Positions 871 to 44,185 of a stretch of DNA of 64,000 bases are shown here, one piece after another. Below the pieces are notes generated by a model that saw only the letters and a program-made list of their open reading frames with translations, was not told the DNA's origin and did no database searches. The stretch lies in the NCBI GenBank assembly GCA_029891345.1, contig CM056999.1, positions 30,500,418-30,564,417 of the forward strand. The letters are read 5' to 3'. Made by a program: the position numbers and the translations under genes. Positions within the stretch are counted from its first letter, which is position 1; each line of letters opens with the position of its first letter. Source of the DNA: Dryococelus australis (Eukaryota > Arthropoda > Insecta > Phasmatodea > Phasmatidae).

Positions 871-1190
871 ATATTGGTAAAATACAGTGAAAAATATTTA
901 AACATCACTAAAATTTTCTTTTTTAATAATCGTCGATTAATGTGTGAATTCCTCTATGAGTGTTAACTACGGGATTCGTTAAACTTTTATTAGGATAAGT
1001 TTTCAATGAGAGTTATGTTAAAATTATTCGAACCTAAAAACTTTGTTTCCATTAAGACATTTTACGTGGTTATTTTTCATGTGAAACATTTCTTTGTAGG
1101 TATAATTCACAGCATGTATGAATAGTGTGCAAATTGTTTCCTTCATTTGGAAGTTTGCTCATCTTGTCATTGGAAAATGTCATGGAAAAT
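871..1190. other. AT-rich non-coding stretch
   Basis: Nothing recognisable between the two GC-richer patches. Confidence 0.55.
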
Positions 1191-2110
1191 CTATGCAACA
1201 GTCGCAGAGGATAAAATAATTCCTTTTAACTGGATTAGGGCTGGAAAGAGTAGGGTATTTGTTAGTTCGGGAAGAAAGACTTCTGTTGAGTTGATGCAGG
1301 GTAAAATGAAATGAGATAGCAGCTGATGTGTATTGCATGGGACAGAACAGCCCCTGCACCAATGCCAGTCATCGTGTGGGTGCAGTCGCCCTTGAAGTTG
1401 AGATACTGTCAATACTACCATGTAGGTGAACCAACACTCCAGTATCAACAGTAACTGAGGATGCAGAGTCCTTCTGCTTCTTGTCGAGTGTGTCAGAAAA
1501 CAGGACAGCTCAGTCATGACACCAACTCCATCTTTGCCCTTCCGCACCAATGCCAGGATCTCCAATCCATGGATGAAGGTGGGGAGAGATCTATCAGGGA
1601 ACAACCCCCTCTCCTCACCAACAAAATAGCCTGTCAGTCTGGGAAACGCAAGACATCCGGGGCCTACCAGTGGTAGTGGCGGCGATTCCGCTGGCCCAGG
1701 AGTGAAGGCTGACATTGGGGTGCTTCCAAGGTTCGATGCATTCCAACCCATTCATCGTGCACCCACAGTCGGCAGCCCGCAGATTCCAGCAGTGAGGATC
1801 ACTAAACTTCGCATTTTTCAGCATCTCGAGATCCCCCTCCCCATCTTGTCCAGCAGATGCGCATCACCATCTGGTACTGAGATACCGATGTTCCCGATCT
1901 CCAGCCAGTCAGTTGGTTCACGTGCTGCTATATGATTATTAGCAGTCACACCAGAGCCTGGGAATCCCCTATCCACAACCTAGGGATATAACAAGTTGCA
2001 GATAGTCGCCGCACTCAGGCTGCCATGGTCCCATCGTACTCGCAGATGCACCTCACTTTTGCTGATCCTCAAGTTGCACTCCATTCCCAACAAGCGAGCA
2101 GCAATGAGCA
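1191..2110 (-). other. GC-rich patch with unassigned 186-codon ORF
   Basis: GC-rich block of about 900 bases. The minus strand is open for 186 codons (1191-1751) and the opposite strand is open for shorter stretches, as expected for GC-rich DNA. The translation has no domain, signal peptide or repeat that I recognise. The sharp composition change on both sides suggests an inserted repeat such as a retroelement fragment rather than a host exon. Function unknown. Confidence 0.25.
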
Positions 2111-3718
2111 CAATATTCATCCCATAACAGTTTAGCTTGATATTTAAAAAAAATTATAGATGGACAGTATATATATATAAATAAAAAGGTGGGATGTTTT
2201 TGTAAACAACAACAAACATTAAACGAATTATTGTAATGGTATCTAATCTGTTTATAAGTAAAAAAATATATTTTAAATTATTTAATATTTTGTACTTAAA
2301 AACCTAGTGCTATCTCTTGGTGAACAGTTAGTTGTAATATTGATAACATTTATTCTATTTTTCTACTTAAGAAGCATTTTCTAATAAGCAAACTTTTTTT
2401 AACTTGATTAGAATGGACTAATTTACTCTTCATTATATAATATGTTTTGTAAAAAATGTACTATTTTTTAAAGATATTTTAATAATCTCATAACGTCGTT
2501 GACAAATGACTATAATTTAACTACGCATTTATGAAGGAAATTATAATTATTATGCAAAATGTCACGTGGGGCCCACTTGTTAGCATTATTTGGTTTTGTC
2601 AAAGACTTATATTTACCAACGAGTTGACAAATTTACACCCATTTCTGGTAATCACATGACAGGCACTTTTTCCAGTTTTCTGCTCGAACCAGGGGGTGGG
2701 GGGTTATTCTAAGTTATATGTTTTGTTTCTTCTCGGCTAGATTATTTGTTATTACTCGAATTTTCGTTTACTAATGAAAGGAGCTATGCTAAGCACATTC
2801 TAGTGTTTGTTTGACATCACTATGTTTGCTAAGAATCTCGAAATGAAAACGAAGGCCTTCTGGGCCTTCATTACTTAGTTTTATTATAAAAATTTGACTG
2901 GTGTGTTTTTTTTTTGGGACAGTGTGCCTTCAGGCATTACACAAACACAAATACGTATTTTAGATAACTGTTTTAAAAGCACCAATTAAACTTTCTGATT
3001 TAATTTGTAATCTAAGCAGCACTGTAGGCTGGCTAATGTGCGGAATCTATTAGATTATTACAGTTGTTGATATTGAAATAAGATATCTTTATAATGAAAT
3101 AAGATATCATAAAGAATGATTTATTTAAAAAATTTGCTTTGAATAATGTAGTTCGTAAATCACAAGATAGGAAGCGCTAAAATGTAAATAATTCTTGGTG
3201 GTTTACATTCAAAATACTTTCTCTTGAAAATAATTGAGTAAAATTCATATTTTGATATAAATACAATCCACAAGAAACAACACAGTGTATAGTTTATTGT
3301 TCATCACTTATTTTATAATATGTTTATTATAAATAATAGAGGAAAATGCTTGTTTGAAAATAGATTGCAGAAAAAAAAAAGTAAAATGTTTATTCAAAAA
3401 GATCTTTAGGTATGTAACAAACAAATTTATGTGTGCTATTTCTTATCGGCGTACATGCAAATTTATTTAATTTAGTGCAAATGAAATAATCACATATTTA
3501 TGTTTAACACAGCATATGTTCAACCAAGTTATAAAATTAAATAATACAATTTGATACACTTTATGATGCAAACCTTCCATATTTTAATTTAGGGTTTTAT
3601 ATACAAAAAAAAGCGAAATACATTAAAAGTTATATTTATTTTTGTAACATTTGCATATACAATACAATACAGTACAATTTATAATAACATTACTTTTCAC
3701 AATTATATATATACTTTT
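2111..3718. other. AT-rich stretch with small hairpins, no gene
   Basis: No coding region. Two short hairpins lie close together: GAAGGCC-ttctg-GGCCTTC at about 2851-2870 and a GCC-ttca-GGC stem flanked by GTGT/ACAC near 2920-2942. The 14-mer tgaaataagatatc occurs twice near 3072 and 3093. None of these has an obvious role. Confidence 0.5.
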
Positions 3719-4552
3719 TTACATTGGTATTCCTCCACTATACATGTTTATGAGAATCTTATTTCCTTCTGTCGAATTGGTTCGAAACTTTTCCACAGAA
3801 TAGCGAATATTGGGAATAAGATTGATGTGATGCCCGTGGTCAAAAAACTTTTCTGGTAAGGAGCAGAAAATGTATGGCAAAAGAAATACATTTTTGTCGT
3901 CCATTAAAAATAACTGCTTTTGGAAATCTCCCATTTGCAATATCCAAATGCACTTTGTGTTCTGTTAGATAAAATTCATAACTTTCAAACGATTTTTTTT
4001 TAACAATTCATTGACTGTTTTTGTATATGTTTTTACGGATGTCTGAGGCATGATTGCATTCAAAATTACATGCATGACTTTTGCGTAATTATGTAGATAT
4101 TTACCATAATGAATCTGATAAATTTCGGGCCGTGGCACATTCTTTATTTTTTATCTCGGTGGTAATTTGAAATACTTTTCCAAAGTCAAGTATTGGTCTG
4201 CCTGACAGTCTTCAGGATCATACAAGAGCACTGTTTTCTTATGGCATCTTGGCATCTTGGCGAATGAAATATATCAACTGCATGAGCTCCTCTTCCATCA
4301 AGTTGTTTACTGTTTCTTTGTGATCGCGAATTGTGTGCAGTAGATACAGCATGGGTGTAACTCGACATAAATGTATGAGAAGTTGGTGTGCAAACAACAT
4401 CGTGCCTATGGCTATGGGAATGGGAATGCTGACAAACTTGAAATATTGAGTTCCAAAAAGCCTGTAGATCGAGTTGACCGTAATTATAAGCGAAAATTGC
4501 TTCGCATCCAACACCAAGTACGTTAGATTCATGTCTTAAATCCTCTCTTCAG

Positions 4553-4608
<56 letters not shown>

Positions 4609-6711
4609 ATTTCAGACTTTAGAAATTTCATTTGTTTCTCTACAGTTTTCGTACGGTCGAGTAAAGACTATAAAGTTTGTGGTGAATGGAGTTTTCGCAT
4701 GTGAGAGTAAAATAATCAGAATGGGAGTATCGCCAGTCAACAACTTCCTGATAGGCTGGCCGGAATGCATCAGGTTCATGTATTCCGAATAATTTTGGGT
4801 TTTGTCTTCCATCATGTACATCATTCCTCAGCATTTCATCGAACATGTCGCGGGATATCAGAGCATTTTCAAACACTAGATTCAATACTTTGTCGCAGCA
4901 ATAACCGACAGTCGATCTGGAAAGTTGTTTGTTGATGATGATGTCTGGGTAGAAACTATTGACGTCATATTTAATAACATTCCAAAAAGACAGTGGTTTG
5001 CAAACACCACTGCTCTGGAATATTCTTTTTTCATGTACTTGAACTTTGATTTGGAGTAGATTGGTCTAATGTCCATCGCAGACATTCTTTAGGTGAATGA
5101 CAAACATTTCAGATCGGGCATGGCCAGCAAAACGGACTCATTGCTCTGGTATCCTGGTAACATACCAAAAGACAGCATATTCGCGATCTGGTGAGAAATG
5201 GCACTAATCGAACTGTCTTCAAGATTGCAGTTAAAGAGATTGGCCAATTGGTTGGTGAAAATTGCCAAATTAAGCTTGCTGTAAAGTCCGACTACGGCCA
5301 TGCAATCCCTCTTGCTGTAAATTAAAGCCTGCTCCATGTGGTAGAAAACAATAGAGTCTGTGTTCGTTTCACCTGTAAGTTTACTGCAAGCGCTGCCACC
5401 AATGTACTTAGTGTGGCGCACTTGTATGTTTGTGTATTAAGAGTTCACTGCATCAAACTTTCCTTTGTTGTATGGCTCGATGTGAATGATATTTCTCAGA
5501 CACTCGTGATGAAAGTCATCGTCTGTGATGGTGTCATCTAGAATATAATAAATTTGCATAAGCATAGAGTTCAAATCGATTTTACTAAACTTTTGGCTCA
5601 GATAGTTTTTAGACAGGTTCCCGAGCGACAAATTCCCACTGGCCAATGCATTTTTTTTTTCAAGATTGTCAATGTAATGAATATGATACAGTCGCGGTGA
5701 AAACGAATTAATGGAGCTATGGATAATTTTCCAAGGCTTACAAATGGTTTTATTTCGCATTGCATATTGATAACCCACAAGCGAGTCAATAGGAATTTCA
5801 AATCGTATTCTATAATGTTGTGGTCGACGAAGTAATGTGGGTAATTTTGGTATCCCATTAGCACTTTCAGGAAGTATCCCTGACTATACCAAAAGAGAAA
5901 GTTGGTAATGAGATCCTCTTTGTGTGAGAAACTTTGGCTCCAGATGCATTTCACGGGCAGTCTTTCGTATTTCTTCCGCATTTCCACGTCAAAACCATCG
6001 GGCATGCCTAGACATTTTAGGTACGAAATTATACTCCCTTCGACATCCAGATACTCGCAATAGAGTACAAATATGAGCAGTTTTTCTGGACCAAAACCCC
6101 TCAGGGGCAAGTCTTCCAAATTATCCACACCAGTCTCGATGTCGAAGCCCACGACAGGAATGTACTCGTACAGATGAGTGTAGTCGAAAGATGTGTCCAG
6201 GAACAGATGCTTAGATTGCACAAAATATATTTTCCACCATGAGATTACCGACTCCATGTTTCAATCTGCGAAACTTTAGTTTTGCAAGTTGATTCAGTTT
6301 GACAGATGGATTTTGCAAATATCTGTTCTGAAGTATCGATGTACAACTCCATTTGCAACATGAAATGCGCATCAGTCGACTGGATGGTAAAGTAGTATTT
6401 TTTTTTCGCAATTATTTTCACGAGAAGTTTGTAGATTGTGTTCAAGTTACTCGTTGTGAGAAATTCAATTTTTACCAAATTATATGAAACGTACAATGTG
6501 CTTGCCGAATTTTGAGTTAGAATTTCCGACAATTTGAATTAGTTTCCAGAGAGATTGTCGTGTCGATGATTGAATCGATATACGGTTCATATAACTCAAT
6601 CAGTAGTTGACGCATTTTGTATTTCATGTTTTCAGCAACTATAAAGTATATTGAGAGGGGAAATGTCATTATTTGTTCATGCCTAGTCATCGTTTTGAAA
6701 TCGATGCCCAT
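3719..6711 (-). pseudogene. Virus-type family B DNA polymerase, degraded
   Basis: Relic of a replicative DNA polymerase with 3'-5' exonuclease, about 1000 codons long when followed through several frames. Seen in order on the minus strand: an unassigned N-terminal part (6711-6245); exonuclease motif I, FDIETG, at about 6129-6146; exonuclease motif II, NIIEYD, at 5802-5819; an exo III-like YSKRD near 5300; polymerase motif A, DVNSFYP, at 4946-4966; and motif B, KQFSLIITVNSIYRLFG, at about 4450-4505. In motif B the usual Gly after Tyr is Arg. I did not find a motif C (YxDTDS). The C-terminal part ends at 3719. Breaks: stops and frame changes near 6530, 6240, 5600, 5430, 5090 and 4240, plus a 51-base poly-T between motifs A and B. 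The family is secure. The source (nudivirus-like virus, another large insect DNA virus, or Polinton/adintovirus) is not settled. Confidence 0.85.
4556..4606. repeat. Poly-T tract of 51 bases inside the polymerase relic
   Basis: Uninterrupted run of T (poly-A on the polymerase's coding strand). It lies between polymerase motifs A and B, where the protein would otherwise continue. TTCAGA occurs just before it (near 4548) and again just after it (near 4610), which could be a short target duplication of an A-tail insertion or could be chance. Confidence 0.9.
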
Positions 6712-6859
6712 TACATATATCTGATTGTTGTAGATGAAAGACCTGAATATAAATATTTTATTTTGTAGATTTAAAGAACGTGGAGGGCTAAAAAAATTTT
6801 GTTATTTAAGAACCTTTAGTCATAGCTAACAAACTAAGTTGTACAATAACCAGAGCATG

Positions 6860-8224
6860 GCAAATATTCAAAAATATATACAACGACCCAGAACTGAAAA
6901 CTTTGGACAAATTAAAATGGTTTTACATGTATTTTGGCAACTGTCTCTTGGAATGAATTTACACTCGCGAAAATGGTGATGGCAAAGACTCTGACGAAGA
7001 TTTCGAAGAGGAATTTGATGGCGATCTTAATAACAATACTTACATTCCGTTATAATATAAAGATTTTCGGGCCAAGTTCCCAAACACCTCATTCAAAGGC
7101 TATATATACGCCAAACAACTGTTGTCCTCTGGCACTTTTGATATTAACTCAAAAGATCAACTAGTCTTGCTACAACATCTGCTACTTTCACAATAAGACC
7201 ATCGAGGGAACAACGACTTTTTATATACCTAGTGGTAAACTAAAAGAAATAACGAATTGTTTCTCCTTTGCAGAAAAAAAAAAAAAAAAACTTTACGAGC
7301 ACAAAACTGGTATTCATGAGTCATCACACAGCTGCTCCCTGATTTATTATTCCAATCAAACCACGATAGAACGCACATATCATTCGATGGGAATGACTAA
7401 GGAACAAAGACGACACTCCCCTATTCACGAAATTAAAATTACACAATGTGTTTGTATACGAATGTAATCGCAACTCTATTCGGGGATCGGTCAAAATCCC
7501 AATACCTCCTAATGCCCTATCTTTAAACGAATACTTGACTTCACCATTGAGATTCGTCCATTTAGTTGATAGCCTATTCCAATCGGGAGACTACATATAC
7601 AACCAGTTTAAATAGTACATTAGCGCAAAAAATTTAGCTGATGTATACTTCGTACCAAAATTGGAAAACTTTGACACACTTTGACACAGACCTACTTTTT
7701 TCACTTTTGCTGTAGAAGAATATGCAGCTAGCTGGAGAAGTGTATTCTTTCACTTGCTCGATATTTATGTGGGAAATATGAAAACTGAGTTTACAATTTC
7801 TATAAAAACAAAAACTGCTACATCGTGCGGCATTAGACATTTTGTCAAACGACCAGCTCATAATTTGGCATGTTCAATCAAGAGTAATCATGCACACACT
7901 TTACCAAATGCAAGTTACTTTCAATGTGTTCACGTGACCACAAATTCAGATACAACAGGACAAATAATCACTTCTCCAAAATCACTAATCATGAATGCCA
8001 TTTGCAATCGTGTTTTACAAGCTCAAATTGAAAAGATTGAAAAAAAAGGATATGGCCAAATTATACGAACATTCTTGTTATTTCGAACCTCATTTGATAC
8101 GAGCTTTATACAGTCTGTTTGGCTGTTCCAACAAAATGCACACTTTACTTTGCTCGGAAAACATTTTCTTAAATTCTGTTTGAATGAGTTTAAAGGTAAT
8201 GTAAAAAAACTGTTTTTTAAATAA
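6860..8224 (+). pseudogene. Unassigned ORF relic of the virus-like block
   Basis: Plus-strand coding remnant divergent from the polymerase. The best part is an open frame from about 7430 to 8224, interrupted only by an in-frame TAG near 7613 and a TGA near 7683. The last 156 codons (7754-8224) are uninterrupted and end in a lysine/phenylalanine-rich tail. Upstream, between 6860 and 7200, an acidic stretch (DGKDSDEDFEEEFDGDL) is readable in another frame. A run of 18 A at about 7274-7291 probably marks another frameshift. I recognise no domain. Head-to-head arrangement with the polymerase and similar AT-rich composition suggest the same origin. Virus structural protein is possible but unproven. 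Confidence 0.4.
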
Positions 8225-8470
8225 ATAAAACTTATTTTAAAAATAATATAATTATAAAAACGATGCATACATAAAACATATTTCTTTTAAATCTGTATAA
8301 AATTAATTAATATTTACCCAAGGGCACACATTTACCATGGGAATTAGGATCTCTCGGGTTAGGATATATAATTTTTTAATTTTAAAAAGTTATCCATACT
8401 TTTGGAAATTATGCAGTTGAAACACTTCTCTCTCTCCCCACTATACACCCCCTACACAGATCGAATTTAG

Positions 8471-8964
8471 CTAAGAGATGTGATTGAGGTTGTGGTAGGA
8501 ACTGGTTAGGGGGGGGGGTACAGAGGGAACTGCTTCTGCTGCTGGGTCTGCAGTTGGGCGGGGGACAGCCGCTGGATCTGCTGCTGCCGGGTGAGAGGCT
8601 CTTGCAGCTGGGCGAGGGACAGCTGCTGGAGCTTCTGCTGCCAGGTGAGAGGTTCCTGGGGCTGGACGAGGGACAACCGGTGGAGCTGCTGCTGACGGGT
8701 GAGAGGCTCCTGCGGCTGGATGGGGGACAGCCACTGTAGCTACTGCTGCCGGGTAAGAGGCTCCTGTGGCTGGGCGGGGGACAGTCGCTAGAGCTGCTGC
8801 TAAATGACGGACAGCCACTGGAGCTGCTGCTGCCGGATGAGAGACTCCTGCAGCTGGCCGAGGGACAGCCGCTGTATTTATAATATGAGCCACTGTATTG
8901 TTGGGATCTTCGCCCGCCGGCTCCTCTCCCTTGCCCTTTCTCGCAGCATTGGCTTGTGGACAGC
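8471..8964 (-). CDS. Putative terminal exon encoding an Ala/Pro/Ser-rich repeat protein
   Basis: Open in two minus frames. One (stop at 8471) reads as an Ala/Pro/Val/His-rich 18-residue repeat, with units such as PAAGASHPAAAAPVAV. The other (stop at 8409) reads as a Ser/Cys/Pro-rich 18-residue repeat, such as GCPSSSPRNLSPGS. The repeat unit is 54 bp, so both frames stay open and I cannot say which is used. The exon start is placed at 8964 because the minus strand reads TTTTTCACAG immediately before it, a good 3' splice acceptor. Extending the first frame through this site gives a signal-peptide-like stretch that has no ATG, so it is probably intron sequence. A minus-strand TATA box at 9557-9564 and an ATG at 9437-9439 could provide the first exon. 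No homolog recognised. Confidence 0.4.
8520..8878 (-). repeat. 54-bp coding minisatellite, about 6 copies
   Basis: The phrase GGACAGCC or a close variant recurs at 8563, 8617, 8671, 8725, 8779, 8809 and 8863. The spacing is 54 bp except for one 30-bp step, a shortened unit with an internal deletion of 24 bp. All steps are multiples of three, so reading frames are preserved. Confidence 0.9.
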
Positions 8965-9346
8965 CTGTGAAAAATAAGCATAATACAATTAGTTTCACTT
9001 TAAAATCAAACAAAATATAACACTCTAAAAATAATATAATAACCTTAAGATTTTTTTCTCTTTGCTTCCAAAGAAAGCAAACCCATCTTTTTTTTTTTTT
9101 TGCAAAACTTACACATCTGTGTACTGTAGCATTGACAATGTTTAGTCCTTAACTTGCAGAATTTTTTAACATCCTGTTTTCGCTTTTTTTTTTTTTTAAT
9201 TCATTCCACTTTCTTCGTAAATTGTCTATCTTATTTTATCAATTCCGTCACCTTTTCATTTTGAATTTCCAACAGTTTCTCCAGTTATTCTTTTGCCACT
9301 GCACATTTTTCTATGAGTATGTTAATCTCCATTATCGTAGTATGGC

Positions 9347-9439
9347 GACTCAAAAACTTTTATAAATTTCTACAAAATTTGATTGCATTCCCTCAAACAG
9401 CCTGTCTAACACTTCCTTTTCTTCGCCAACCTTGTCCAT
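9347..9439 (-). CDS. Possible short first exon or small ORF upstream of the 54-bp repeat gene
   Basis: An ATG at 9437-9439 opens a 30-codon frame beginning MDKVGEEKEVLDRLFEG that looks like amphipathic coiled coil. It lies about 120 bases downstream of a minus-strand TATA box and upstream of the Ala/Pro-rich exon. The frame closes at a stop, and further coiled-coil-like stretches continue in other frames down to about 9200, so this could be a decayed exon. No homolog recognised. Confidence 0.3.
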
Positions 9440-9556
9440 TTCTGCCAAACTTGACTAACGGTCACTACTACAAATAGTGCTAAATATCACACTGCTTCCA
9501 AACAGTGTTATATCTGCAATACCTAGCACACAGACACTAGACCAAAGTGTGTGGTG

Positions 9557-9564
9557 TTTATATA
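9557..9564 (-). promoter_or_regulatory. TATA box (minus strand)
   Basis: Minus strand reads TATATAAA. A small ORF and the Ala/Pro-rich repeat exon lie downstream in the same orientation. It points away from the plus-strand TATA box at 9979, making a divergent arrangement about 415 bases apart. Confidence 0.45.
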
Positions 9565-9883
9565 TGCACCAAGTAAATTTTTACTTAGTATTTTGTGGTG
9601 GTAGGTAGGGATTACTTTATAAGCGAATTTTTTTCTTTTTTACTTCACGCACTCGTATGTTTGTGTTTCTTTTTTCCCTCATCAGTGTATCTGATATGCG
9701 CTCGCTCAAAGTCATAACTAGGGTTCGTACATGGGGCAGTGAGGTGACTGGCATACATTACTCAACTTGGCCTCATTATTATGCGATAATTGTCTCAGGG
9801 CAGAAATAATTTTTTTACAATGCAAAAAGGAGGTTCCCCTCATGTTCCCCCCCTCCCACCAGACTAACTTTTATTTTTTCTTC

Positions 9884-9978
9884 TAGTGTTCTGGGTAGGA
9901 GCCAGATTACATTTTTCTCCTAATGTCCTGGTAAGTGTCAGAGTATTTTTTCTCCAAGTGTTCCAGTCAAAGCCAGAT
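9884..9978 (+). repeat. Degenerate ~35-bp tandem repeat, 3 copies, before a TATA box
   Basis: Three diverged units, each containing a version of AGTGTTCTGG then GCCAGATTA and a T-rich end, run directly into the TATA box at 9979. Their position suggests upstream promoter elements, but that is inference. Confidence 0.5.
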
Positions 9979-9986
9979 TATATAAG
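9979..9986 (+). promoter_or_regulatory. TATA box of the octapeptide-repeat gene
   Basis: TATATAAG, 86 bases upstream of the ATG at 10072. It fits as the promoter of the octapeptide-repeat ORF. Confidence 0.5.
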
Positions 9987-10071
9987 CAGTGAACTTTGCG
10001 ACAAATAATATCAACCATCAGCCAATGGCAAACCTACAGTGCATTGTGTGTAGTGGTTCCCAGTGGTCAAG

Positions 10072-10720
10072 ATGCCAATCTTTGATGCCAATGATGTCGC
10101 TGTCTACGTCGAAGAGGCCATCAACATCAGTGACAAAGAGGCAGTGGCGGGGGCCAATACCTTCGACATTGAAGAGACAAACACCTTCAACATTAAAGAA
10201 TTTGGCATATTCAACTTCGAACACCTCATCGCCCTTGATGCCGAAGATGCCATTTTCTTCTGTGCCGAGGATGTCATGCTCTTCGACGCCGAAGAGGTAA
10301 TTCCCTTCAATGCCGATGATGTCATGCTCTTTGACACCAAAGAGGTCATCTTTCACACCCAAAAAAGAGGTCATCTTTCATGCCGAAGATCTCATCACCT
10401 TCGGTGTCAAGGATGCAGTCTCCTTCGATACTAAGGATGTCATCTCCTTCAACATCAACGATACCATCTACTTCTCAAGGAGGATGAGGCCCATTAAAGG
10501 AAGGAATCCACCTTCAGCACCATTGGCACCACCACCCTCTGCTGATGCGCATGTAATGGGAATGGCACCTCTCGCACCCAATATGATGCTCCCTGAAGGG
10601 TTTATGCAGATACCATTACAGGTACCTTTGCCACCTCCAGGCATTTCATTTTGTTTTAAGACTGTTTATTTCAATAATAGGACTGTTATTACAGTAACAA
10701 TTACTAATAAAAATAAATAA
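10072..10720 (+). CDS. Octapeptide-repeat protein, frameshifted
   Basis: Begins at ATG 10072 (MPIFDANDVAVYVEEAINI). The middle is built of degenerate 8-residue units of the type F-D-x-x-D/E-x-x-x, such as FDAEEVIP, FNADDVML, FDTKEVIF and FDTKDVIS, one unit per 24 bp, for roughly 15-17 units between about 10072 and 10480. The first frame runs to 10434 and the second from about 10360 to 10720. They join near an A-rich run (CACCCAAAAAAGAGG), where a partial duplication of AAGAGGTCATCTTT is also visible. The second frame ends in a Pro-rich segment (SAPLAPPPSADAHVMGM) and a Lys/Asn tail. It has its own TATA box and an AATAAA. No homolog recognised. Regular F/D periodicity suggests a beta-solenoid-like or scaffold repeat, but this is only inference. 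Confidence 0.5.
10706..10711 (+). terminator. AATAAA polyadenylation signal
   Basis: AATAAA overlaps the last codons of the octapeptide-repeat ORF, whose TAA stop is at 10718-10720. A second AATAAT follows directly. Confidence 0.45.
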
Positions 10721-10953
10721 TAATTTTTTCAATTGTGTTTCATTTCTATATTACATAATAAGATGTATTTATATTTCTTTTACAGCAAATATTATTGATT
10801 ATTATAGTTGTGTTGTTGGTTTTAATAACTGAGAAGTTGCACTCAAAGATGAACATTTTGTACAACCTCTAGAGATATTTAATAATCCCCACCACAATTT
10901 TTACCTCCATCACTTCAGTCGTCTCCGACAACCGAATATAATTCCAGACATTA

Positions 10954-11656
10954 AATAACAATTAATTTTGGTTTCAGAAATAACTTTGTAACCCATCACT
11001 CTGTCAATTTTTGTTTCGATTATAATGCAAAGTCTGTTGACAAATTTAAATGGAAAGAACTTTCGCGAAACTTGTATGTCAATTTTAATTTTACCAGTAC
11101 GAAACACGACATGCTGTCTTTTGCATTTGATGATATTTCGGTAAAGCCATTCAATATATACAAAAATGACTACATTATATATTTTGCCCTACTAAACATC
11201 GTCAACGAGTTGAAATGGACTTTGAATTCTGCTTTTACGATTGTTCAACATATTGCCAAACAACATGTGATGGCTGTGGTTCGAGACACTATGATTCCTC
11301 TCTTCAAGAACGCCGCGTTTTTCGTAATGGAAAATCAAAACAATATGGATCCTTTGATGGAAATTTTATGAGTGAATAACGTGTTTACACATTTCGACTA
11401 TAAGAAATACGATAGCCTGGTGTGGCTACACTCGACTTTTGGCCATTTTAATGATTCCGTCAATGAGAATGGTGTGTTATTTCAGTTTTACGGTGGTGGC
11501 CGAGTTTTGCTGGAAACGGTAATTATAAAAACTTTGGCTCCTCCCTACGACATAAGTGATGAGAGTAGCGATGTGGAGGATGGTGCCCTTATTTTATTCG
11601 ATAATGATTCCGATATTGGCATACAAGACAAAAAAAAACAATTTAATTATTTATAA
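10954..11656 (+). pseudogene. Unassigned virus-like ORF with one internal stop
   Basis: A single frame about 234 codons long, interrupted only by TGA at 11369-11371. The C-terminal part has an acidic tail (DISDESSDVEDGALILFD) ending in a Lys/Gln/Asn-rich stretch at 11656. No ATG is obvious at the beginning, so the start is uncertain. It lies just upstream of and parallel to the 11719 ORF. I recognise no domain. One nonsense change in an otherwise open frame suggests recent decay or a sequencing error. Confidence 0.5.
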
Positions 11657-11718
11657 GAAACAAAAACCCTCTGGAAAAAAATCTTTAATTTATAACTAAG
11701 GTAAAAAAACAAATATGT

Positions 11719-12375
11719 ATGGATAAAATAAAAATGGACAGTGTCGAAAAACTCGCAAAGATGGTAGGCTACGGTCGAAAGAATTATATTTCGTCGATTT
11801 TTTTGGAATTTGAATATTACAAACAGTTGATGAAAATACTGGACGGTATAGATTTCGCCTTAAAAAAATTGTATTCTCACGAATTTATGAAAAAATATTT
11901 AATTAAAGATGAGTTTACAGATTTGGAAATTGATACTTTTCTAAATCAAGTCCAGCAAAACAAACAAACACTGCACAAACTCGTCAAACTAAAAACAAAA
12001 GTGGAAAACAAATCATTTCAGCTGGCATTTCTTCAAAAATTGTACGAATTGGCTCAAATAGATGCAAGCATTAATTCCGAAGAGTTTTACTCAAAATTAT
12101 TAAACATTATTCACGGAAACAATATACACACTGGCATTTCGTCAGAAGTCATACTCCATAAAATTTTTGCGATTATTCCCAATATATCTACTTATATGTT
12201 GGCAGACTTTATGCCAGTTGTCAATGGCATTGCACTTAATGGTCGAAACAGTCCACTACTGTGGAAAAAAAGATGGTTATATATAATAATACTTATCAAC
12301 AAAAACTACAATATGACGATGAACAATAATAACGAAATTCAGTTCGAGGTATTGATAAAGTATTTTGAATTTTAA
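11719..12375 (+). CDS. Unassigned 218-aa ORF of the virus-like block
   Basis: Intact from ATG 11719 to TAA 12375. Lys- and Asn-rich protein with long helical stretches; no signal peptide or obvious membrane segment. No domain recognised. Its C-terminal part (around ADFMPVVNGIALNGRNSP) has two relic copies downstream, at about 13590-13700 and 14235-14310, both broken. It sits 60 bases after the interrupted 10954-11656 ORF and just before the BRO-family relic, all on the plus strand. A coding frame this long in such AT-rich DNA is unlikely by chance, so it may be young or under constraint. Confidence 0.55.
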   Translation: MDKIKMDSVEKLAKMVGYGRKNYISSIFLEFEYYKQLMKILDGIDFALKKLYSHEFMKKYLIKDEFTDLEIDTFLNQVQQNKQTLHKLVKLKTKVENKSFQLAFLQKLYELAQIDASINSEEFYSKLLNIIHGNNIHTGISSEVILHKIFAIIPNISTYMLADFMPVVNGIALNGRNSPLLWKKRWLYIIILINKNYNMTMNNNNEIQFEVLIKYFEF

Positions 12376-12394
12376 GGTAAAATTTTAACCACTT

Positions 12395-13052
12395 GTAATA
12401 TAGTACGAGCTGAAATCAAACCGGGTAAATATGTGATTTGGTTTCGAGCAAAAAAAAGTGCTCAATTTTTATAAAATGGCGATTCTAGAAAGGCTATTCA
12501 AAAAATTTACGAAAAGATGATCAAATATGTTGAAACATTATAACAAAAAATATATACTTGTACTAAAAAAATACATGCATTGCACAAGGGAGCGACTGCC
12601 AGTCCCCCCAGAAAGTACTTTAGCTCCACCCCCCCCCCCCCTTGATAAATACCATATATGTGTTTATTGGCAGACTCATATGTTATTCATAAATGAACCA
12701 GGGTTGTATGTTTTGTTGATGCGCTCTAAAAAAAGCTAAAACATTTACGAAATGGGTTTATGAGGAGATTTTGCCAATGCTCCGGCAAGTGGTTATAGCA
12801 TTCGACAGCACCAAAAACCTTCCTCAGAAACCACTGATAATTGTAAAAAATAACGAACTCACTCAGCATCTCATATTAGCAAATGAAAAATTAATTCAAG
12901 CATGTGATGAAGCAGTTAAAGCGAGAAAAGAAATGACCATGATGGCTACTAGGTTTGCAGATATTGTTCAAGATGTGGCGGTGAAACACGATCAACCCCA
13001 ACTTCGAGATGATCTGGTCATGTGCCAGTACCAATCTGATGATAATGAATAA
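12395..13052 (+). pseudogene. bro: BRO-family protein (Bro-N domain), frameshifted
   Basis: BRO proteins are DNA-binding proteins typical of baculoviruses, entomopoxviruses and other large DNA viruses, and also occur in mobile elements. Seen here: the start of a Bro-N domain (VIWFRAKK, near 12437), then in other frames LFINEPGLYVLLMRSKK (about 12685-12735) and KTFTKWVYEEILPMLRQ (about 12739-12790), which together follow the Bro-N order. A C-terminal segment resembling the region before the BRO C-terminus (MATRFADIVQDVAVKHDQPQL) ends at 13052. At least two frameshifts (near 12500 and 12737) and a CCCCCCCCCC run at about 12631-12640 break it. Confidence 0.75.
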
Positions 13053-13400
13053 TCTAATACAAATTAAAGCAAACGAAAAATAACATTGACTTTTATACAT
13101 ACTCAAAACCAATCTCTGAATTGTGCGGTTAAAAAATAATATAAAAAGAATCCAAAAATTCAGGAAATTATGCGCTCCAACTATGTACCAAACAGCACCC
13201 ACATGATCAATTGTCTAAAAAAACTAATTGAGATGATGCAACATTGAATATGTACTCAAATACAATTTCATCAAATTACTGAATTCTGATTACAAAGACT
13301 TAGTAAATGAAATAGTAAAAAATCTTGTAGAAAAGACAATAAACTCTCATTATGTAAGACGTAAAAAACATACATTGTATAAGGGAGGATTGAAGCACCT
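13053..13400 (+). other. AT-rich spacer with decayed coding fragments
   Basis: Short open fragments, for example DYKDLVNEIVKNLVEKTI at about 13290-13345, suggest old coding sequence of the same virus-like block. Nothing can be named. Confidence 0.35.
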
Positions 13401-14155
13401 TCCAAATTGACCGAATTTTTTTATGGGGATTGGAAGACCCCCCTTAAAAAATTCGGTTTATTTAGAAGGTGATTCAGTTCCCCTTCTTATAAATAGACTT
13501 GGTTTTATGGCATCACATATATAATACATTATATAGTAAAGGGTTAAATTAAAATGTAGACTTATTTTTCCCCATCTTGCACGATTACAAAAAATATTTT
13601 TTATAACTATTCCTACTGATACACTTGCAGACATTATGTGAATCATCAACAGCTTTGCACTGAAAGATTGAAACAGACCAACTAAACTCGTGTTCACAGA
13701 CCACTATATGAATATCGATCATTAGAAACAAAAATTAAAAAAAAAGACAGGTATTTGTACTGAAAAAACATACATTTATTATTTCAAAAGGTGATTCAGT
13801 CCCCCTTTTTTAATGTGAACAATATAGAAAAAAGGAGGGGGGGATTTTCGGTCCCTGCAAAAAAGTTCGATCTTTTTGGAAGGTGATTCAGTCCCCTTGT
13901 TGATATAAACAATGTACAAGGGGGGATTTCCAGTCCCCCAAAAAATGTGGTCTATTTGGAAGGTGATTCAGTACCGTTTTGATATAAAGTGTATAAGGGG
14001 GGATTTCTGATCCCCTAAAGAAATTTATATTTGGAAGGAGATTTTGTAACCCTTTGATATAAATAATGTACATGGGGGACTGGAAGTCCCCACTTTAAAG
14101 ATTCTGTTTATTTGGAAGATGATTCAGTCCAAGGGGAGGATTTCCAGTCCCCTAA
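13400..14155. repeat. hr-like array of imperfect palindromes, 6 units
   Basis: The phrase TTTGGAAGGTGATTCAGT or a variant recurs at about 13460, 13785, 13873, 13954, 14030 and 14110; the last four are about 79 bp apart. Each unit also carries a G-run/C-run imperfect palindrome, such as GGGGACTGGAAGTCCCC at 14075-14091, or GGGGGATTTCCAGTCCCCC at 13921-13939. Tandem short palindromes in AT-rich DNA are what baculovirus and related virus homologous repeats look like (replication origins/enhancers). Their place beside BRO and polymerase relics supports that reading, but homology to a known hr was not tested. Confidence 0.6.
13590..13700 (+). pseudogene. Relic copy of the C-terminus of the 11719 ORF
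   Basis: The bases around 13610-13690 align with 12180-12260 of the 11719-12375 ORF (shared words include TTGCAGACATTATG against TTGGCAGACTTTATG, followed by TTGCACT...GA). Stops interrupt it. It lies within the palindrome-array region. Confidence 0.5.
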
Positions 14156-14234
14156 AAAAAATTATATTTTTTCCCCCCTAAAAACACAATATAAAAAATG
14201 TAAATTAAAAATAAAATGTACTGCATCCAACAGT

Positions 14235-14310
14235 TACAAAATTTTTTTTTGCTATGATTCCTGTATATTAAATGCCAGACATTATGTGAAACATCAGTAA
14301 TGTGTCATTA
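14235..14310 (+). pseudogene. Second relic copy of the same ORF segment
   Basis: Bases 14245-14300 resemble both 12170-12230 and 13605-13660 (GCCAGACATTATGTGAAACATCAG against GCAGACATTATGTGAATCATCA). Broken by stops. Confidence 0.4.
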
Positions 14311-14381
14311 TGACGAAGCCCACAACTTGATCAGTATTTCAACAAAACCGTTGGATCGAAACATTGTAATGTTGCATAAAC

Positions 14382-14979
14382 TTGTACTATACTCATGAGC
14401 CGGAGAATCATGTACAACACTGCATCGGGTCTGAACACTTTACATTTTGCAAACATCCTGCAATGATGCATCTTCAGTGTTTTAGCATTCCCTGCAACAC
14501 CAAATGCGAAATGTATTTGAAAACTGTTAAATTGGAAGAATTTCATTATTATGATTTTGACTGCCAAACTATCGAAACCATGTACATTAAAATTAACTGA
14601 AAGGAAGAATTGCCATGCGGTTATACATATATGGATTGTGCGAGTCCTCAGAATTCGGACAATTGCACTCTAGTAATTGAAACCATGGAAAGATACGAAA
14701 GAGGAAAGAGAAGAGCACATTACATAACATGATCAAGTTAGGCACATTATGGTATGTAAGGATCCAGTACATCCTGCCAGATGTTTGTGGTATGAACATG
14801 CAAATGGCCAACACAAATTCAAACAACAATGTGCATTATTGAGTAATAAACACGAGATGATGAAAATTATAAAATGTCGCCAATTTAAATTAAACAGTGT
14901 GTATCTTTTTACCAAAATAAATTGCTACATTGTTATGAGTATTTTTCTCATTTATCCAATTCTCATTCGGTTTTTTTAG
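14382..14979 (+). other. Two small unassigned Cys/His-containing ORFs
   Basis: A 72-codon frame (14382-14600) has several Cys and His residues (HCIGSEHFTFCKH and CFSIPCNTKC). A 76-codon frame (14749-14979) contains CKDPVHPARCLWYEHANG and KQQC. No known zinc-finger spacing fits. They may be remnants of the virus-like block. Neither has a supported start. Confidence 0.3.
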
Positions 14980-15135
14980 TTTTGGCAACTATTTACCAGA
15001 GTGCTTCATGATCGACATGACATCGCCCCCCTTCCCCACCACCAATTGATTCAACAACCAATCAGAGTACACCATTACATTCCCAAAAATTTTTAGTTGC
15101 CAAATTAAATGGTTTGTTGGAAAAAAAAGGGGGGG
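14972..15135 (+). repeat. Third, direct copy related to the large inverted repeat
   Basis: TTTTAGTTTTGGC then GATCGACAT and TTCAACAACCAATCAGAGTA align in the same order with 15275-15390 (ATTTAGTTTTGTG, GATCGACAT, TTCAACAACCAACC). This is a diverged direct repeat of the left part of the inverted-repeat arm. Confidence 0.55.
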
Positions 15136-15255
15136 GGGGGATGGCAATAGCATTTTTGCAAAATCTTGCAAAACTAAACAAAAATATCAGCTGGTCGCCA
15201 TACAAGTAATTTGTATTCAAAGTTTGTCTTGAAAAATAAATTTTGAATGTTAGTA

Positions 15256-15264
15256 AGGTATATA
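15256..15264 (+). promoter_or_regulatory. TATA-like site just before the inverted repeat
   Basis: TATATAAGG at about 15258-15266, some 55 bases before the left arm. It could drive transcription of a long hairpin RNA. Based on position only. Confidence 0.25.
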
Positions 15265-15317
15265 AGGTCTGGAGAAAAAAAAACAGTTATTTAGTTTTGT
15301 GTGATTTCGTCAGATTG

Positions 15318-15797
15318 CGCCACGATCGACATTCCTTCCACCCCACTTGCTTTCAACAACCAACCAATATTGTTGCAGTACTTCATTTCTCCTCACTTCC
15401 CCTCCTTTAAGTTTGGCCTATATGGAAGAGAAATCTGGAAAAAGACATCAGTCGATGGCGAGAGCTGAATGTGGAAACATCACCCTTCCTCCTAGAGCAG
15501 AAGAAAAGGAGTAAGTATAAAAATAATAAATATACCATATATATACATACCTTATAAAATATTTATATTTTATTAGGTATATTTATTTTAGTATTATTCT
15601 TATTCCACTCCTTCTCTTGGAGCAGAGATGTTTCTCTATCCAGCTCTCGTCCTTGACTGACATATTTTTTCCAGATTTATCCACCATATAGGTCAAACTG
15701 AAAAGATTGGCAGGGAGGGGAAATGAAATGCTGTAACATGATTGGTTGCTGAAAGTAAGATTAGGAGGGGGAGGAGAGGAAAGCCGATCATAACACA
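15318..15797. repeat. Large imperfect inverted repeat, arms about 230 bp
   Basis: The left arm (about 15318-15550) and the reverse complement of the right arm (about 15565-15797) align along their length. Shared words in order: ATGATCG/ACGATCG, TTTCAACAACCAA against TTTCAGCAACCAA, CATTTC-CTC, CCTATATGG, AAATCTGGAAAAA, CAGTC, CGAGAGCTG, GAAACATC, and AATAAATATACC near the centre. The arms are diverged, so this is not a recent duplication. Transcription through it would give a long hairpin RNA. Confidence 0.75.
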
Positions 15798-15799
15798 TT

Positions 15800-16499
15800 C
15801 TGGTGGATATTGGTATTGAAATTCAAACCCAAATTGCCAAAAAATATACAAAAGTTTGTCACTCTCCAAAAAAAAAATTAAAATTTCTTATTATATACAT
15901 TATGTTTTAAGTTAGACTGTTATGATACCGAGCAACACATTTTTAGACTTTAAATTATGTCCATAAACTGTTTGTTTCCCTTTAGTTGTTCTATTATTAC
16001 CTCCACTATAGAGTCGTGCTCGCTAATTTTTGTAAAAAAATCTTGCATAAATGAATAACTCGGTAAATTAACTTAGAGAATATGTTCAAACACCGATCTT
16101 GTTAGATATGTGCACTCTGATGCTTTAATTTTTTTGCACTCATTGTTCGAAGACCAAAGGTGAGGAAATAACCATACACGATTGCCAGCTTCTGGCACCA
16201 GTTGTTTCTCCCACAGAAAATGAATGGGAACATTCATTGATTAAAATTGTCAAATGGTAGTTTTTTGTTGACGGCTTCGATTAGGAGCGGTAAATAATTT
16301 TTGCTTCTATCAAAAAGATTTGTGCACAAGCCATGTACTTGGTCTGCTGAAATTGACTCTTTGGCCCAAGGTCAGAATAGTTTCTGGTAAATGCCATTGC
16401 AGGGTTGGTAAAAGAATTTGTGTAAGTTTGGTGTGGATGCTTCACTGTTGTCGTGTCCGAGCAGAGGTGGAATGTAATGCTCAAAGACTGTATCATGTG
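15800..16499. other. No supported gene
   Basis: Mixed AT-rich sequence; short frames on both strands (16281-16529) overlap one another and show no domain. Confidence 0.5.
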
Positions 16500-16538
16500 A
16501 TTTGTTGTTCAAGTTTTTCAAAAACTTGAACAACAAAT
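16500..16538. repeat. Perfect 19-bp inverted repeat with 1-base centre
   Basis: ATTTGTTGTTCAAGTTTTT, then C, then its exact reverse complement. A 39-base near-perfect cruciform, with no mismatch. Confidence 0.95.
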
Positions 16539-18700
16539 TGCTCAAAACATCGTCCGATCCTGGTGTATTTTGTGCTTAGGGACTCCCAGGTAAATCGATT
16601 TGCTTTTGCACCTTTACAAATGAATGATCGGCAAGCGCGAATGCTAGGCAGAAAACCATTACTGGTACAATCAATATATGCAATAGCGAGATTACCTGAT
16701 CAAATTCAGTCATGTAGAATCAGAAAATTATTTTGACTAGGGAAACCATGTTTACTTGATTGGGTCTTTCCACCAGCCTGAATGTTTTGGGTATCTGTAT
16801 CACTAGTGCCTGGATTGTAGATGGCTGCGCAGGTTGTCGGGCTAGTCGGTGGTGGAGTTGTGTTGGTACTACTGCAATGAAGTGAACAGAGGTCTAGGTT
16901 ATGTTTTCCGATAATTAATTTGACAGGTTCCTCCCTTAAGTTAAATTTCAGGCGTTTACAATACTTTTTTTTTTTTTTGCATTTTAAAGTCGTTTGGCCC
17001 ATATTTTGATTCCTAAAGTAAATATTGGTCTTGTCCTTTAAAGCTCAGTTAATTATCCTGGCCAATCCATCTATAAAAAAAATAGTTCTATACGTGCACA
17101 TAATTACAGTAACTTTACATTGTCTTTGGTGGGAATTGCGTTTAAGCCGTAGGGGGGCTACTGGCGGAGCACTATCGATATAGCTAATTTAAGATAGTGT
17201 ATTTACATATATTTCGATGCACTGATCCAAAATAATTTTGGTTAAGGTATATTCATTTTGAGTAGGGCTTCCTGTTAGCCCTACAGCCAATTCTTTTATT
17301 TCTTGAAAGGGGCATCTTACCCCAAATCCATATGAGAGTAACCTTGTTATACTTTTTTTTTCTGAATGTTTATTAAATTGGGGTAAAAAGCTTAATTTGA
17401 AGTAACCCAACTTTTCTATTTTTCAATATTTATATGTTTGATGAAAAATAGCTATCCTAAAAGTTAAATATCTATGTCTTATACTATTTTTATTAGTGTT
17501 ATCTTCTATTTATATACATTTTTGTTAATTTAAATAAAACCCATTTATTTTATTTTTTTTATATTGTTTTTGGTTTCTTGCTAGTTGATAAAGACCCCGC
17601 TATTTTTTTCTGTGGTAAATCTCGACATCTCTCTCTCTGTAATTATTTTTATGTACAGGGTTATAGGTTTAAGGTAATCTACTTTATTGGCATTTTCTTC
17701 GTTGCATTATTTCTGTGTCAGAGTCAGACCCATGAAGCAGTCACAGAATCCTGTTGCTTGCTGAGCAAGTAACCCCCCCCTCCCCTTTCCCTACTCCTTG
17801 TTTACTTTTGTTTAAATGAGCCTTTTCTGGTTTTAAAGTAGGTATTTAGGGTACAGGGTATCGTGCTGGCCCTGCTGAGTAAAAGTTACAGCAGGTGGTG
17901 GAGGCTTCGCAGGCTTCCCTACCTCCTCCTCCTCCCCAACTTCCCCGTAACAATATATTATATATATTTTTCTGGTTTTTACTTTAACACTGCAAATACA
18001 GTTAATTAAAATCTATATTTTAATATGGTTTTAATATACTATATTTTGACAGTTTAATTTTAATAATGCAAGGATTGTTAATAAAAAAAATTTACACGAA
18101 TGTTACGCAAATTTTTTTGCAAATGTACTTTTGTTATGAAACTGGCCTTTCAAAATAATGTTCATCTCCAACATTATGTCGTTATGTCAAATGACACAAT
18201 TAAAATTCTGCAACGTTCAAAAACTTAGAAAGATAATTTTTTTTTATTCCACATCATTAATTCTTAAAGCTTGCTTTCCCTAAATGTAGCCCACATGTCA
18301 ATAAAAATATTATTTTAAGCATGCCTTTCAATTTATAAAATGTTTATTTCTGAGTTGAGACCAACTGATAACAAATACAAAGAAAATTATACATGTATTT
18401 TATGTGGAAAAGCAAAAGACCGAGCAAATGTTTTGAACATTGCATCGACTTGCTGACTTAGTGTTAACCCACTTTTGTGGTGGCAGCGGTGGTATGTTAG
18501 TGTGGTGTAACATCTTCCAGCAATTCATAATGTTCAGTTGATAGTGTTAAAATGGCACATGTACAAAAGAAAATCTAGCAGAGCAAACAAATACAAGCAT
18601 GTGCATCACCAAATTCTTTCCCAACGGGAGACAGGAACAGAATAAATTTACTTCAAAGGATCTTTACAACCGAGTTTTACACAAAATAAATGCAACAAAC
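16539..18700. other. No supported gene
   Basis: A 98-codon minus frame (16706-17002), starting in a lysine run encoded by poly-A, has no recognisable domain. Simple C and GGTGG-rich stretches occur at 17767-17785 and 17890-17950. The rest is AT-rich without signal. Confidence 0.5.
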
Positions 18701-19099
18701 ATATGTGACGTGTTTCCTGAATAAATTTGTTTGTCTTTAACAATATAATATTAAATACACAAGCACAAACAATTATCAAGCTAAAATTATGGAAAAACAG
18801 GAATAATTTCGCTGGTATTACTCCCAGCCTGGACTTACATTTTGGAGTTACGTCACAAATAAATAATTTATTTGTTGTAAAAAATTGTTACTTCACACAG
18901 TTACAGGAGTAATTACGAATGCTAATCATTTATAAAGAACTATAAATGATCTCACATTTCACAGGAAAAAATCCCATTTCAAGGGGAGGGTATCCCCCCC
19001 CCCTCCTACACTTTTCACCATCCTGCTGACACCTATGACAAGGAGATTTTTAATGAATGTCTGAAAAAGTTTTAGATGGAAGAGTAAGCACAAATACAG

Positions 19100-19990
19100 C
19101 AAGTCAACAAAATTCCTAAAAAAAAATGTTTAGAGATAGGATTCACTGTTGCCGCAGTAAAAGTTATTACAGTCAAATTGCTACTATGCAAAAGGCGAAA
19201 ATTCTTTAGTGATGGGACTTGCAGACAGTGCAGAATGGAGTTTCCTCACTTTCCCAAATGGATCTTCAGTACCCTACCTATCAGAGGCATTCCTTGACAG
19301 GAAAGGCTTGAATCACTTGAATTTTAAGAATAATTTTATAGGTCTTGACTCGGACACAGAGAAAATGCGGATTCGACAAGGGAACAATTCAAAGAGGCCT
19401 AGAGCTTGTAGATCACTCTACTTTGTCCAATTTCCATGGCAAACTTACAAAAAACTGTTGATGGAGTAAATCCAGAGACTATTTTTGATTATACCAAATA
19501 TCTTAGTGATAACCTTAGGGAACGAAAGCTTATTTTCAACACATGTGTAAAATATCCTAACAAAGTAGTAAATTATTCCAAAAGCTCAGCAATGTTTGTA
19601 ATGTGCATTTCAGCAACAGTCTAAGCACTGCCATCTTTTGTTGTATACAAGGCTACCACCATGTGGGATTGGAGTATCAAAAGAGCCCCTTTGCAAAGCT
19701 ACTCTAGTGTTATGTGCATTAGGTGCAATCACGGCTGGTTTGACTCTTCAAAATTCTATTATTGATTTGAGAACATATTCATTCTTCCTGTAAATTTAAC
19801 AGAGGAATGAAAAGTCTCAATTGGAGACATTTTGCCCTTCCACCTACCTGATGAAGTTTCAAAATTGTGCAGAAAAAAGTAATGTGTCTCTCTCTACCAA
19901 TCAATGCCACCACATCTCTGCCTGCCTATATCTAAATATTCAGGTTGTGTTCAAACTGGCACTTTTAGTTCACTAAAAGGTTACATGAGC
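19100..19990 (+). pseudogene. Tigger/pogo-type DDE_1 transposase relic
   Basis: Coding remains of an IS630-Tc1-mariner superfamily (pogo/Tigger, CENP-B-like) transposase. In order: a KRPRACRSLYF segment preceding the catalytic domain (about 19395), FDYTKYLSDN where families have a N-Y-D-E-T core (about 19470-19500; the Glu is not preserved), KYPNKVVNYSKSS (about 19550), FVVYKATTMWDW (about 19640), a NHGWFDSSKF segment (about 19730), and IGDILPFHL near 19825, the place of the second catalytic Asp. These are in several frames with multiple stops. No TIRs located. It is not the same copy as the minus-strand element at 41 kb. Confidence 0.7.
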
Positions 19991-30109: not shown

Positions 30110-30130
30110 GTTTTATGTTGTTCTTATTTA

Positions 30131-43720: not shown

Positions 43721-43724
43721 GAAG

Positions 43725-44180: not shown

Positions 44181-44185
44181 GACAC

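What the first reader, a model, noticed from the sequence alone, without database searches (positions are those of the whole stretch)
3719..15800. Decayed large-DNA-virus-like insertion of about 12 kb in an arthropod genome
Within 12 kb lie a family B DNA polymerase relic with exonuclease I/II and polymerase A/B motifs, a BRO-family relic, several unassigned coding remnants (one intact), an hr-like palindrome array and duplicated ORF fragments. None of this is host-like. BRO genes and hr arrays point to a nuclear insect DNA virus; a polymerase alone would also fit a Polinton or adintovirus. If the latter, integrase, ATPase or capsid genes should be near; I saw none.
Basis: partly seen in the sequence, partly recalled or inferred. 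Interest (0 to 1): 0.9.

Follow-up and report, generated by a model that had tools for sequence, protein, structure and literature searches.

The report
Fossil of an unplaced DNA virus
What looks like a dead, broken piece of a large DNA virus genome, with the remains of its DNA-copying enzyme and of a virus-type BRO gene, sits in what is probably an animal chromosome; the one close relative found is an unnamed protein from public sequence data.

Summary
The core observation holds. On the minus strand, window 6768-3909 is a decayed family B DNA polymerase. One piece found a single protein (P0001, 1183 aa, 75% identity, E 1e-67). P0001 aligns to the relic from residue 6 to 1178 (934 codons, 66% identity) with 4 stops, 9 frameshifts and a gap of about 210 residues that holds motif C, so the relic cannot polymerise DNA. 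P0001 and a distant second relative, P0002 (29%), match ordinary DNA-polymerase B, not the protein-primed type; a Polinton or adintovirus is disfavoured. A Bro-N remnant lies at 12653-12739 (E 1.2e-4, just under Pfam's cut-off), followed by an anti-repressor-type match in another frame. One ORF (11719-12375, 218 aa) is intact, with no relative found. The repeat array is real, but only its first part is clearly palindromic. Best reading: an integrated, decaying fragment of a BRO-carrying large dsDNA virus. Endogenous large DNA viruses are a known kind; this lineage may be undescribed.

The parts
3909..6768 (-). family B DNA polymerase relic; exonuclease and motif A and B regions present, motif C region missing; broken by stops and frameshifts, with a 51-nt poly-T tract (4556-4606) inside
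   Evidence: tblastn of P0001: six aligned stretches in three frames; counts from a frame-tolerant alignment: 934 codons, 66.3% identity, 4 stops, 9 frameshifts, ten deletions, the largest 181 and 26 aa; poly-T
6816..8230 (+). probable decayed coding remnant of unknown family; longest stop-free run 7685-8224 (179 aa)
   Evidence: 1 of 300 shuffles reaches it; no Pfam match better than E 0.019 for four pieces; no relative in viral contigs
8471..9148 (-). 225-aa stop-free run, Ala/Pro-rich, coded largely by a 54-nt tandem repeat (8548-8801); membership in the insertion uncertain
   Evidence: 0 of 300 shuffles
9980..10740 (+). 24-nt-repeat-coded ORF remnant; membership in the insertion uncertain
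   Evidence: 7 of 300 shuffles; no Pfam match at E 0.05
10955..11656 (+). two stop-free runs (138 and 94 aa) in one frame separated by one stop; unknown family
   Evidence: 5 of 300 shuffles; no Pfam match; no relative in viral contigs for the first run
11719..12375 (+). intact ORF, 218 aa from its ATG, unknown family
   Evidence: 0 of 500 and 0 of 300 shuffles; none of 94 candidate proteins at E up to 1; none in viral contigs; best Pfam E 0.039
12653..13052 (+). BRO gene remnant: end of Bro-N at 12653-12739, continued in another frame at 12720-13052
   Evidence: Bro-N E 3e-4 and 1.2e-4, under the curated cut-off; phrog_463 anti-repressor E 2.6e-4; DUF3627 E 0.01, below its cut-off
12542..12608 (+). 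stretch before the Bro-N remnant that resembles the repeat array
   Evidence: local alignment score 24, 0 of 300 shuffles reach it (maximum 20)
13368..14159 (.). repeat array; regular 77-nt period at 13875-14078, looser copies around it, CAGTCCCC core; long palindrome with arms 13375-13428 and 13439-13492
13590..13648 (+). fragment resembling 14238-14296 (71% over 59 nt)
14238..14296 (+). second copy of 13590-13648
15346..15759 (.). long imperfect palindrome (83-nt arms 81% complementary; 73% over the whole); foldback, MITE-type or viral repeat not decided
   Evidence: 15300-15800 tested, 0 of 200 shuffles

Best explanation
A fragment of the genome of a BRO-carrying large double-stranded DNA virus was integrated into the germline of the host and has been decaying since as an endogenous viral element. 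Shown: the polymerase is a broken homologue of a full-length polymerase that exists in public sequence data, and it lacks the motif C region, so it cannot polymerise DNA; a broken BRO-type remnant lies about 6 kb away. Inferred: that P0001 is viral; that polymerase, BRO remnant, intact ORF and repeat array came in with one insertion; that entry was by chance repair of viral DNA in a germline nucleus; that the element is inert today, except perhaps as a source of small RNAs.
For: P0001 homology over residues 6-1178 with 4 stops and 9 frameshifts. P0001 has an unbroken 1183-aa sequence with exo, A, B and DTD motifs by eye and PF00136 E 4.1e-12, PF03104 E 6.5e-5, yet is far from cellular polymerases (best solved structure E 0.0033). 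Bro-N remnant and anti-repressor profiles. Stop-free runs and the BRO remnant lie close together on one strand from 10955 to 13052. The octamer CAGTCCCC occurs six times in the 64-kb window, all at 12600-14145. The window also holds transposase, reverse transcriptase and integrase relics and a syntaxin-18 gene.
Against: No virus family could be assigned. P0001 and P0002 carry no source name. P0002's best solved-structure matches are cellular polymerase alpha (E 5.7e-8; pol2 model E 1.5e-8), and P0001's best profile is a phage polymerase family (phrog_262, E 3.4e-29), so neither points to an insect virus family by itself. The Bro-N score is under the curated cut-off and only the end of the domain is seen. 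No pif, lef, capsid, ATPase or p33 family was seen in the 29 of 68 ORFs of the region scanned. About 2.7 kb between the two diagnostic genes (8230-10955) has no viral signal. Junctions with host DNA were not seen. The 218-aa ORF is intact, which at the polymerase relic's rate of damage is expected about 1 time in 20.
Confidence: 0.72

Rival explanations
1. The stretch is a composite: polymerase and BRO remnants came from two separate viral insertions, or BRO arrived with a different mobile element, and later sat side by side.
For: About 2.7 kb without viral signal (8230-10955) between them; palindromes and repeat-rich stretches suggest rearrangement.
Against: Coding remnants lie close together on one strand from 10955 to 13052, and the array repeat recurs beside BRO. 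Two rare insertions within about 9 kb is a costlier account.
Confidence: 0.13
2. A self-integrating giant mobile element, as endogenous nimaviruses are described in PMC10871703 (passages seen), of which this is a truncated copy.
For: Large dsDNA viruses of crustaceans are reported as integrase-carrying giant elements.
Against: No integrase or recombinase family in the 29 of 68 ORFs of the region scanned, and the repeat scan of 1-20000 listed no terminal repeats that clearly bracket it. Copy number could not be tested: the genome search did not complete.
Confidence: 0.08
3. Polinton or adintovirus remnant.
For: Family B polymerase in a probable animal genome without other assigned replication or virion genes.
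Against: The unbroken relative hits PF00136 and PF03104 and no protein-primed polymerase family at E up to 1 (P0002 likewise hits only PF00136). No Polinton integrase, ATPase or capsid family in the ORFs scanned.
Confidence: 0.02
4. Part of the insertion is retained by the host: the intact 218-aa ORF is a domesticated viral gene.
For: At the polymerase relic's rate of stops and frameshifts (13 in 2860 nt) 3.0 are expected in 660 nt; chance of none 0.05, range 0.006 to 0.20.
Against: One ORF chosen after the fact; no homologue found, so no selection test; no expression data.
Confidence: 0.05

Closest known systems
P0001, unnamed 1183-aa polymerase on a 5566-bp contig (source tag lgn, which I take to be a public read assembly)
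   Same: 75% identity over the exonuclease piece, 94% of it covered; 66.3% over 934 aligned codons
   Different: unbroken, all motifs present by eye; its organism is not stated
P0002, unnamed 1286-aa polymerase on a 5025-bp contig (source tag lgn)
   Same: 29% to P0001 over 78% of residues 560-860, E 6.1e-12; both have a DTDG form of motif C
   Different: distant; its best solved-structure matches are cellular polymerase alpha (E 5.7e-8); context unknown
Naldaviricetes (baculo-, nudi-, hytrosa-, filamento-, nimaviruses, and unclassified bee and ant viruses)
   Same: the class encodes a DNA polymerase as a core gene, BRO genes are prevalent in it, and related remnants are reported in ant genomes (PMC12548425, PMC10271883, passages seen)
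   Different: no pif or other signature gene seen in the ORFs scanned here; no reference polymerase of the class could be compared
Other BRO-carrying insect viruses (entomopox-, asco-, iridoviruses; recalled)
   Same: BRO genes and family B polymerases (recalled)
   Different: not compared; no sequence of theirs was retrieved

Membership tests
Endogenous viral element of a large dsDNA virus | broken homologue of a viral replication gene | tested here: inconclusive
   homology and breakage shown; that the relative P0001 is viral is inferred, not shown
Endogenous viral element of a large dsDNA virus | embedded in host chromosome | tested here: inconclusive
   transposon relics and syntaxin-18 in the same window; junctions not seen, no long reads
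BRO gene family | Bro-N domain | tested here: inconclusive
   end of the domain only, E 1.2e-4, 23.1 bits against a cut-off of 25.6; supported by anti-repressor profiles on the next frame; first half not detected
Naldaviricetes | pif genes | tested here: inconclusive
   none among 29 of 68 ORFs of the region scanned with Pfam; a fragment need not hold them
Naldaviricetes | polymerase groups with the class in a tree | not testable with these tools
   no reference polymerase was reached; four of eight viral-contig scans used polymerase queries and gave no relative
Polinton / adintovirus | protein-primed family B polymerase | tested here: not met
   P0001 hits PF00136 and PF03104, P0002 PF00136; no protein-primed family at E up to 1
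Polinton / adintovirus | retrovirus-like integrase, packaging ATPase, capsid nearby | tested here: not met
   none in 29 of 68 ORFs of the region scanned; the integrase match in the window is at 55490-55873, downstream of a reverse transcriptase
Baculovirus-type hr (definition recalled) | tandem units each with an imperfect palindrome | tested here: inconclusive
   tandem units yes; strong palindrome at 13360-13500 only, four other stretches not
Cellular DNA polymerase | close match to alpha, delta, epsilon or zeta | tested here: not met
   best solved-structure match of P0001 E 0.0033; P0002 matches alpha at E 5.7e-8 over about 135 residues, still distant

The most novel reading that the evidence does not exclude
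The relic, P0001 and P0002 mark an undescribed family-level lineage of BRO-carrying large dsDNA viruses of invertebrates, with a polymerase whose motif C reads DTDG, known only from a chromosomal fossil and unlabelled sequence contigs.
Probability: 0.35. Interest if true: 0.65.

Novelty: new member of a known kind. Interest (0 to 1): 0.5.

Why it matters
Fossil polymerases widen the host record of large DNA viruses. Here one short piece led to an unbroken relative in public sequence data, so the source lineage can probably be found and placed. If it lies outside the described families it adds a branch to the viruses that animals have met. If it falls in a known family it is one more remnant of a common kind.

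Tried and rejected
Tried without result. Pfam and PHROGs on single polymerase pieces gave only hints. PDB by sequence with three pieces gave 0, 0 and 1 match, the one being a LysR regulator at E 0.28. The intact ORF gave no relative in the protein collection or viral contigs. All eight scans of viral contigs gave no relative: four with window pieces outside the polymerase, four with P0001, P0002 or alignments of them. One scan of prokaryote genome contigs with P0001 gave none. P0001 against phages gives 10 records at 23-27% identity, best E 3e-5; P0002 gives none. NCBIfam gives P0001 an archaeal polymerase model at E 2e-11 and P0002 the pol2 model at E 1.5e-8, both far below the cut-offs ('archaeal' is recalled). 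A structure model of P0001 from two sequences failed (mean pLDDT 28), so no fold search was made. Rfam found nothing at gathering scores. In nine literature searches (two of them empty) I saw listings and no paper that I could tie to this polymerase; papers rarely print sequences, so this says little.

Considered and rejected: a cellular polymerase (P0001 too distant); a Polinton or adintovirus; chance motif matches (E 1e-67). I do not claim the first half of Bro-N, a gene at 13060-13400, or one at 14280-15000.
Full report
What was checked. The finding names a 12-kb, virus-like, decayed stretch at 3719-15800. I tested each named item on both strands and looked at the rest of the 64-kb window. 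In the region there are 68 stop-to-stop ORFs of 60 aa or more; 29 of them were scanned with Pfam (count), and 21 more ORFs elsewhere in the window.

Polymerase. Single stop-free pieces gave only hints: DNA_pol_B_exo1 E 0.022 on the exonuclease piece and phage DNA polymerase profile phrog_1252 E 6.5e-4 on the motif A piece. One piece (158 aa, exo I to exo II), scored alone, had 77 candidates in a collection of 5.77 billion proteins and returned one protein, P0001: 1183 aa, 75% identity over 94% of the piece, E 1e-67, on a contig of 5566 bp with source tag lgn and no name. P0001 matches PF00136 (E 4.1e-12) and PF03104 (E 6.5e-5). By eye it has an FDIET exo I, a DVNSFYP motif A, an NSTYG motif B and a DTDG motif C (the motif names are recalled). 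tblastn of P0001 on the window gives six stretches on the minus strand, from 6768 down to 3909, in three frames. A frame-tolerant alignment covers residues 6-1178: 934 codons, 66.3% identity, 4 in-frame stops, 9 frameshifts, two insertions (2 and 13 codons) and ten deletions, the largest 181 and 26 aa. No stretch covers P0001 residues 859-1068; motif C is at residues 898-900. A 51-nt poly-T tract (4556-4606) also lies in the gene. The relic cannot be an active polymerase.

How far from known polymerases. P0001's best solved-structure match has E 0.0033 (43 sequences up to E 1). Its best profile is a phage polymerase family (phrog_262, E 3.4e-29), and phage records give 10 distant matches (best E 3e-5, 26% identity). 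A protein search with P0001 residues 560-860 had 3909 candidates and returned only P0001 itself and P0002 (1286 aa, 29%, E 6.1e-12, source tag lgn). P0002 matches PF00136 (E 1e-21), also has a DTDG motif C, and among solved structures matches cellular polymerase alpha best (E 5.7e-8); P0001's best alpha match is weaker (E 0.028). These protein searches reach only relatives that share short exact words with the query, and I could not confirm that reference insect-virus polymerases are in the collection. So 'no known family close' is a result of these searches, not a proof. No protein-primed polymerase family reached E 1 for P0001 or P0002.

BRO. Pfam Bro-N matches 12653-12739 (positions 58-80 of 96, E 1.2e-4, 23.1 bits; the curated cut-off is 25.6, E 3e-4). 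The following frame, 12720-13052, matches phage anti-repressor profiles (best phrog_463, E 2.6e-4; that anti-repressors and BRO proteins are akin is recalled) and DUF3627 weakly (E 0.01, below its cut-off). The two lie in different frames, so the gene is broken. An upstream stretch that I read by eye as the start of Bro-N gave no Pfam match. The stretch before the remnant, 12542-12608, resembles the repeat array (score 24; 0 of 300 shuffles reach it, maximum 20).

Other coding remnants. 11719-12375 is an intact ORF of 218 aa within a stop-free run that no shuffle reaches (0 of 500; 0 of 300). It has no relative in the protein collection (94 candidates, none at E up to 1) or in viral contigs; its best Pfam match has E 0.039. 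The runs at 7685-8224 and 10955-11371 are probably coding (1 and 5 of 300 shuffles). The 225-aa run at 8471-9148 is beyond all 300 shuffles but is largely a 54-nt tandem repeat; the run in 9980-10740 (7 of 300) is coded by 24-nt repeats. Stretches 13060-13400 and 14280-15000 are not clearly distinguishable from chance (133 and 17 of 300) (all). At the rate of stops and frameshifts in the polymerase relic, an ORF of 660 nt would escape with probability 0.05 (range 0.006-0.20), only a weak hint of retention.

Repeats. Tandem Repeats Finder sees 2.6 copies of a 77-nt unit at 13875-14078; looser copies extend over 13368-14159. The octamer CAGTCCCC occurs six times in the window, all at 12600-14145. 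The stretch 13360-13500 is a strong palindrome (score 52; 0 of 200 shuffles). Four other stretches tested singly are not (143, 22, 149 and 32 of 200 shuffles reach them), so 'hr-like' is a loose likeness only. It may be a foldback or MITE-type element of the host as well as viral.

Surroundings. The window also holds a single-exon syntaxin-18 ORF (29114-30112, E 9.3e-20), a DDE_Tnp_1_7 transposase relic (34636-35148; the name piggyBac is recalled), two reverse transcriptase pieces (47968-48546, 54086-54631) and a Pif1 helicase fragment (53270-53716), a DDE_1 transposase relic (41381-41722) and an integrase piece (55490-55873). These make a eukaryotic, most likely animal, chromosome. Nothing here names an arthropod. 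The genome-wide search for further copies did not complete, and its collection is one of prokaryotes, so this genome may not be held at all.

Reading. The most economical account is one integrated fragment of a large DNA virus that carried BRO, now a decaying endogenous element. Shown: polymerase homology and its death; a BRO-type remnant; an intact unknown ORF; repeats. Inferred: single insertion, viral identity of P0001 and P0002, chance integration, inertness. The weakest links are the unnamed relatives and the stretch 8230-10955, whose repeat-coded ORFs carry no viral or host family match.

Comparison with the known. Members of Naldaviricetes have a DNA polymerase as a core gene and BRO genes are prevalent in the class (PMC12548425, passages seen; PMC10271883, passages seen). 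Endogenous remnants or forms of such viruses are reported in ants (PMC12548425), hymenopterans (PMC10259472, passages seen) and crustaceans (PMC10871703, passages seen). pif genes, the signature of that class according to PMC10271883, were not seen in the ORFs scanned here. Other BRO-carrying insect viruses (recalled) remain possible. I therefore file this as a new member of a known kind (endogenous large DNA virus) from a lineage not placed, and keep the undescribed-lineage reading at 0.35.

Noticed in passing
window 15346-15759: 414-nt imperfect palindrome with 83-nt arms 81% complementary; a 35-nt stretch at about 15050-15085 resembles part of it (score 21, shuffle maximum 15 of 200 shuffles); foldback, MITE-type or viral repeat not decided
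   Followed up: partly
window 29114-30112, minus strand: unbroken single-exon syntaxin-18 ORF of 332 aa (Syntaxin-18_N E 9.3e-20); retrocopy or intronless gene not tested
   Followed up: no
window 8548-8801 and 10237-10331: ORFs coded by 54-nt and 24-nt tandem repeats inside the claimed insertion, without any convincing family match
   Followed up: partly
P0001 and P0002 (proteins, not loci): two unnamed polymerases with DTDG where motif C of family B usually reads DTDS (usual form recalled)
   Followed up: partly
window 43722-44187: 76-bp tandem repeat, 6.1 copies, 97% matches
   Followed up: no
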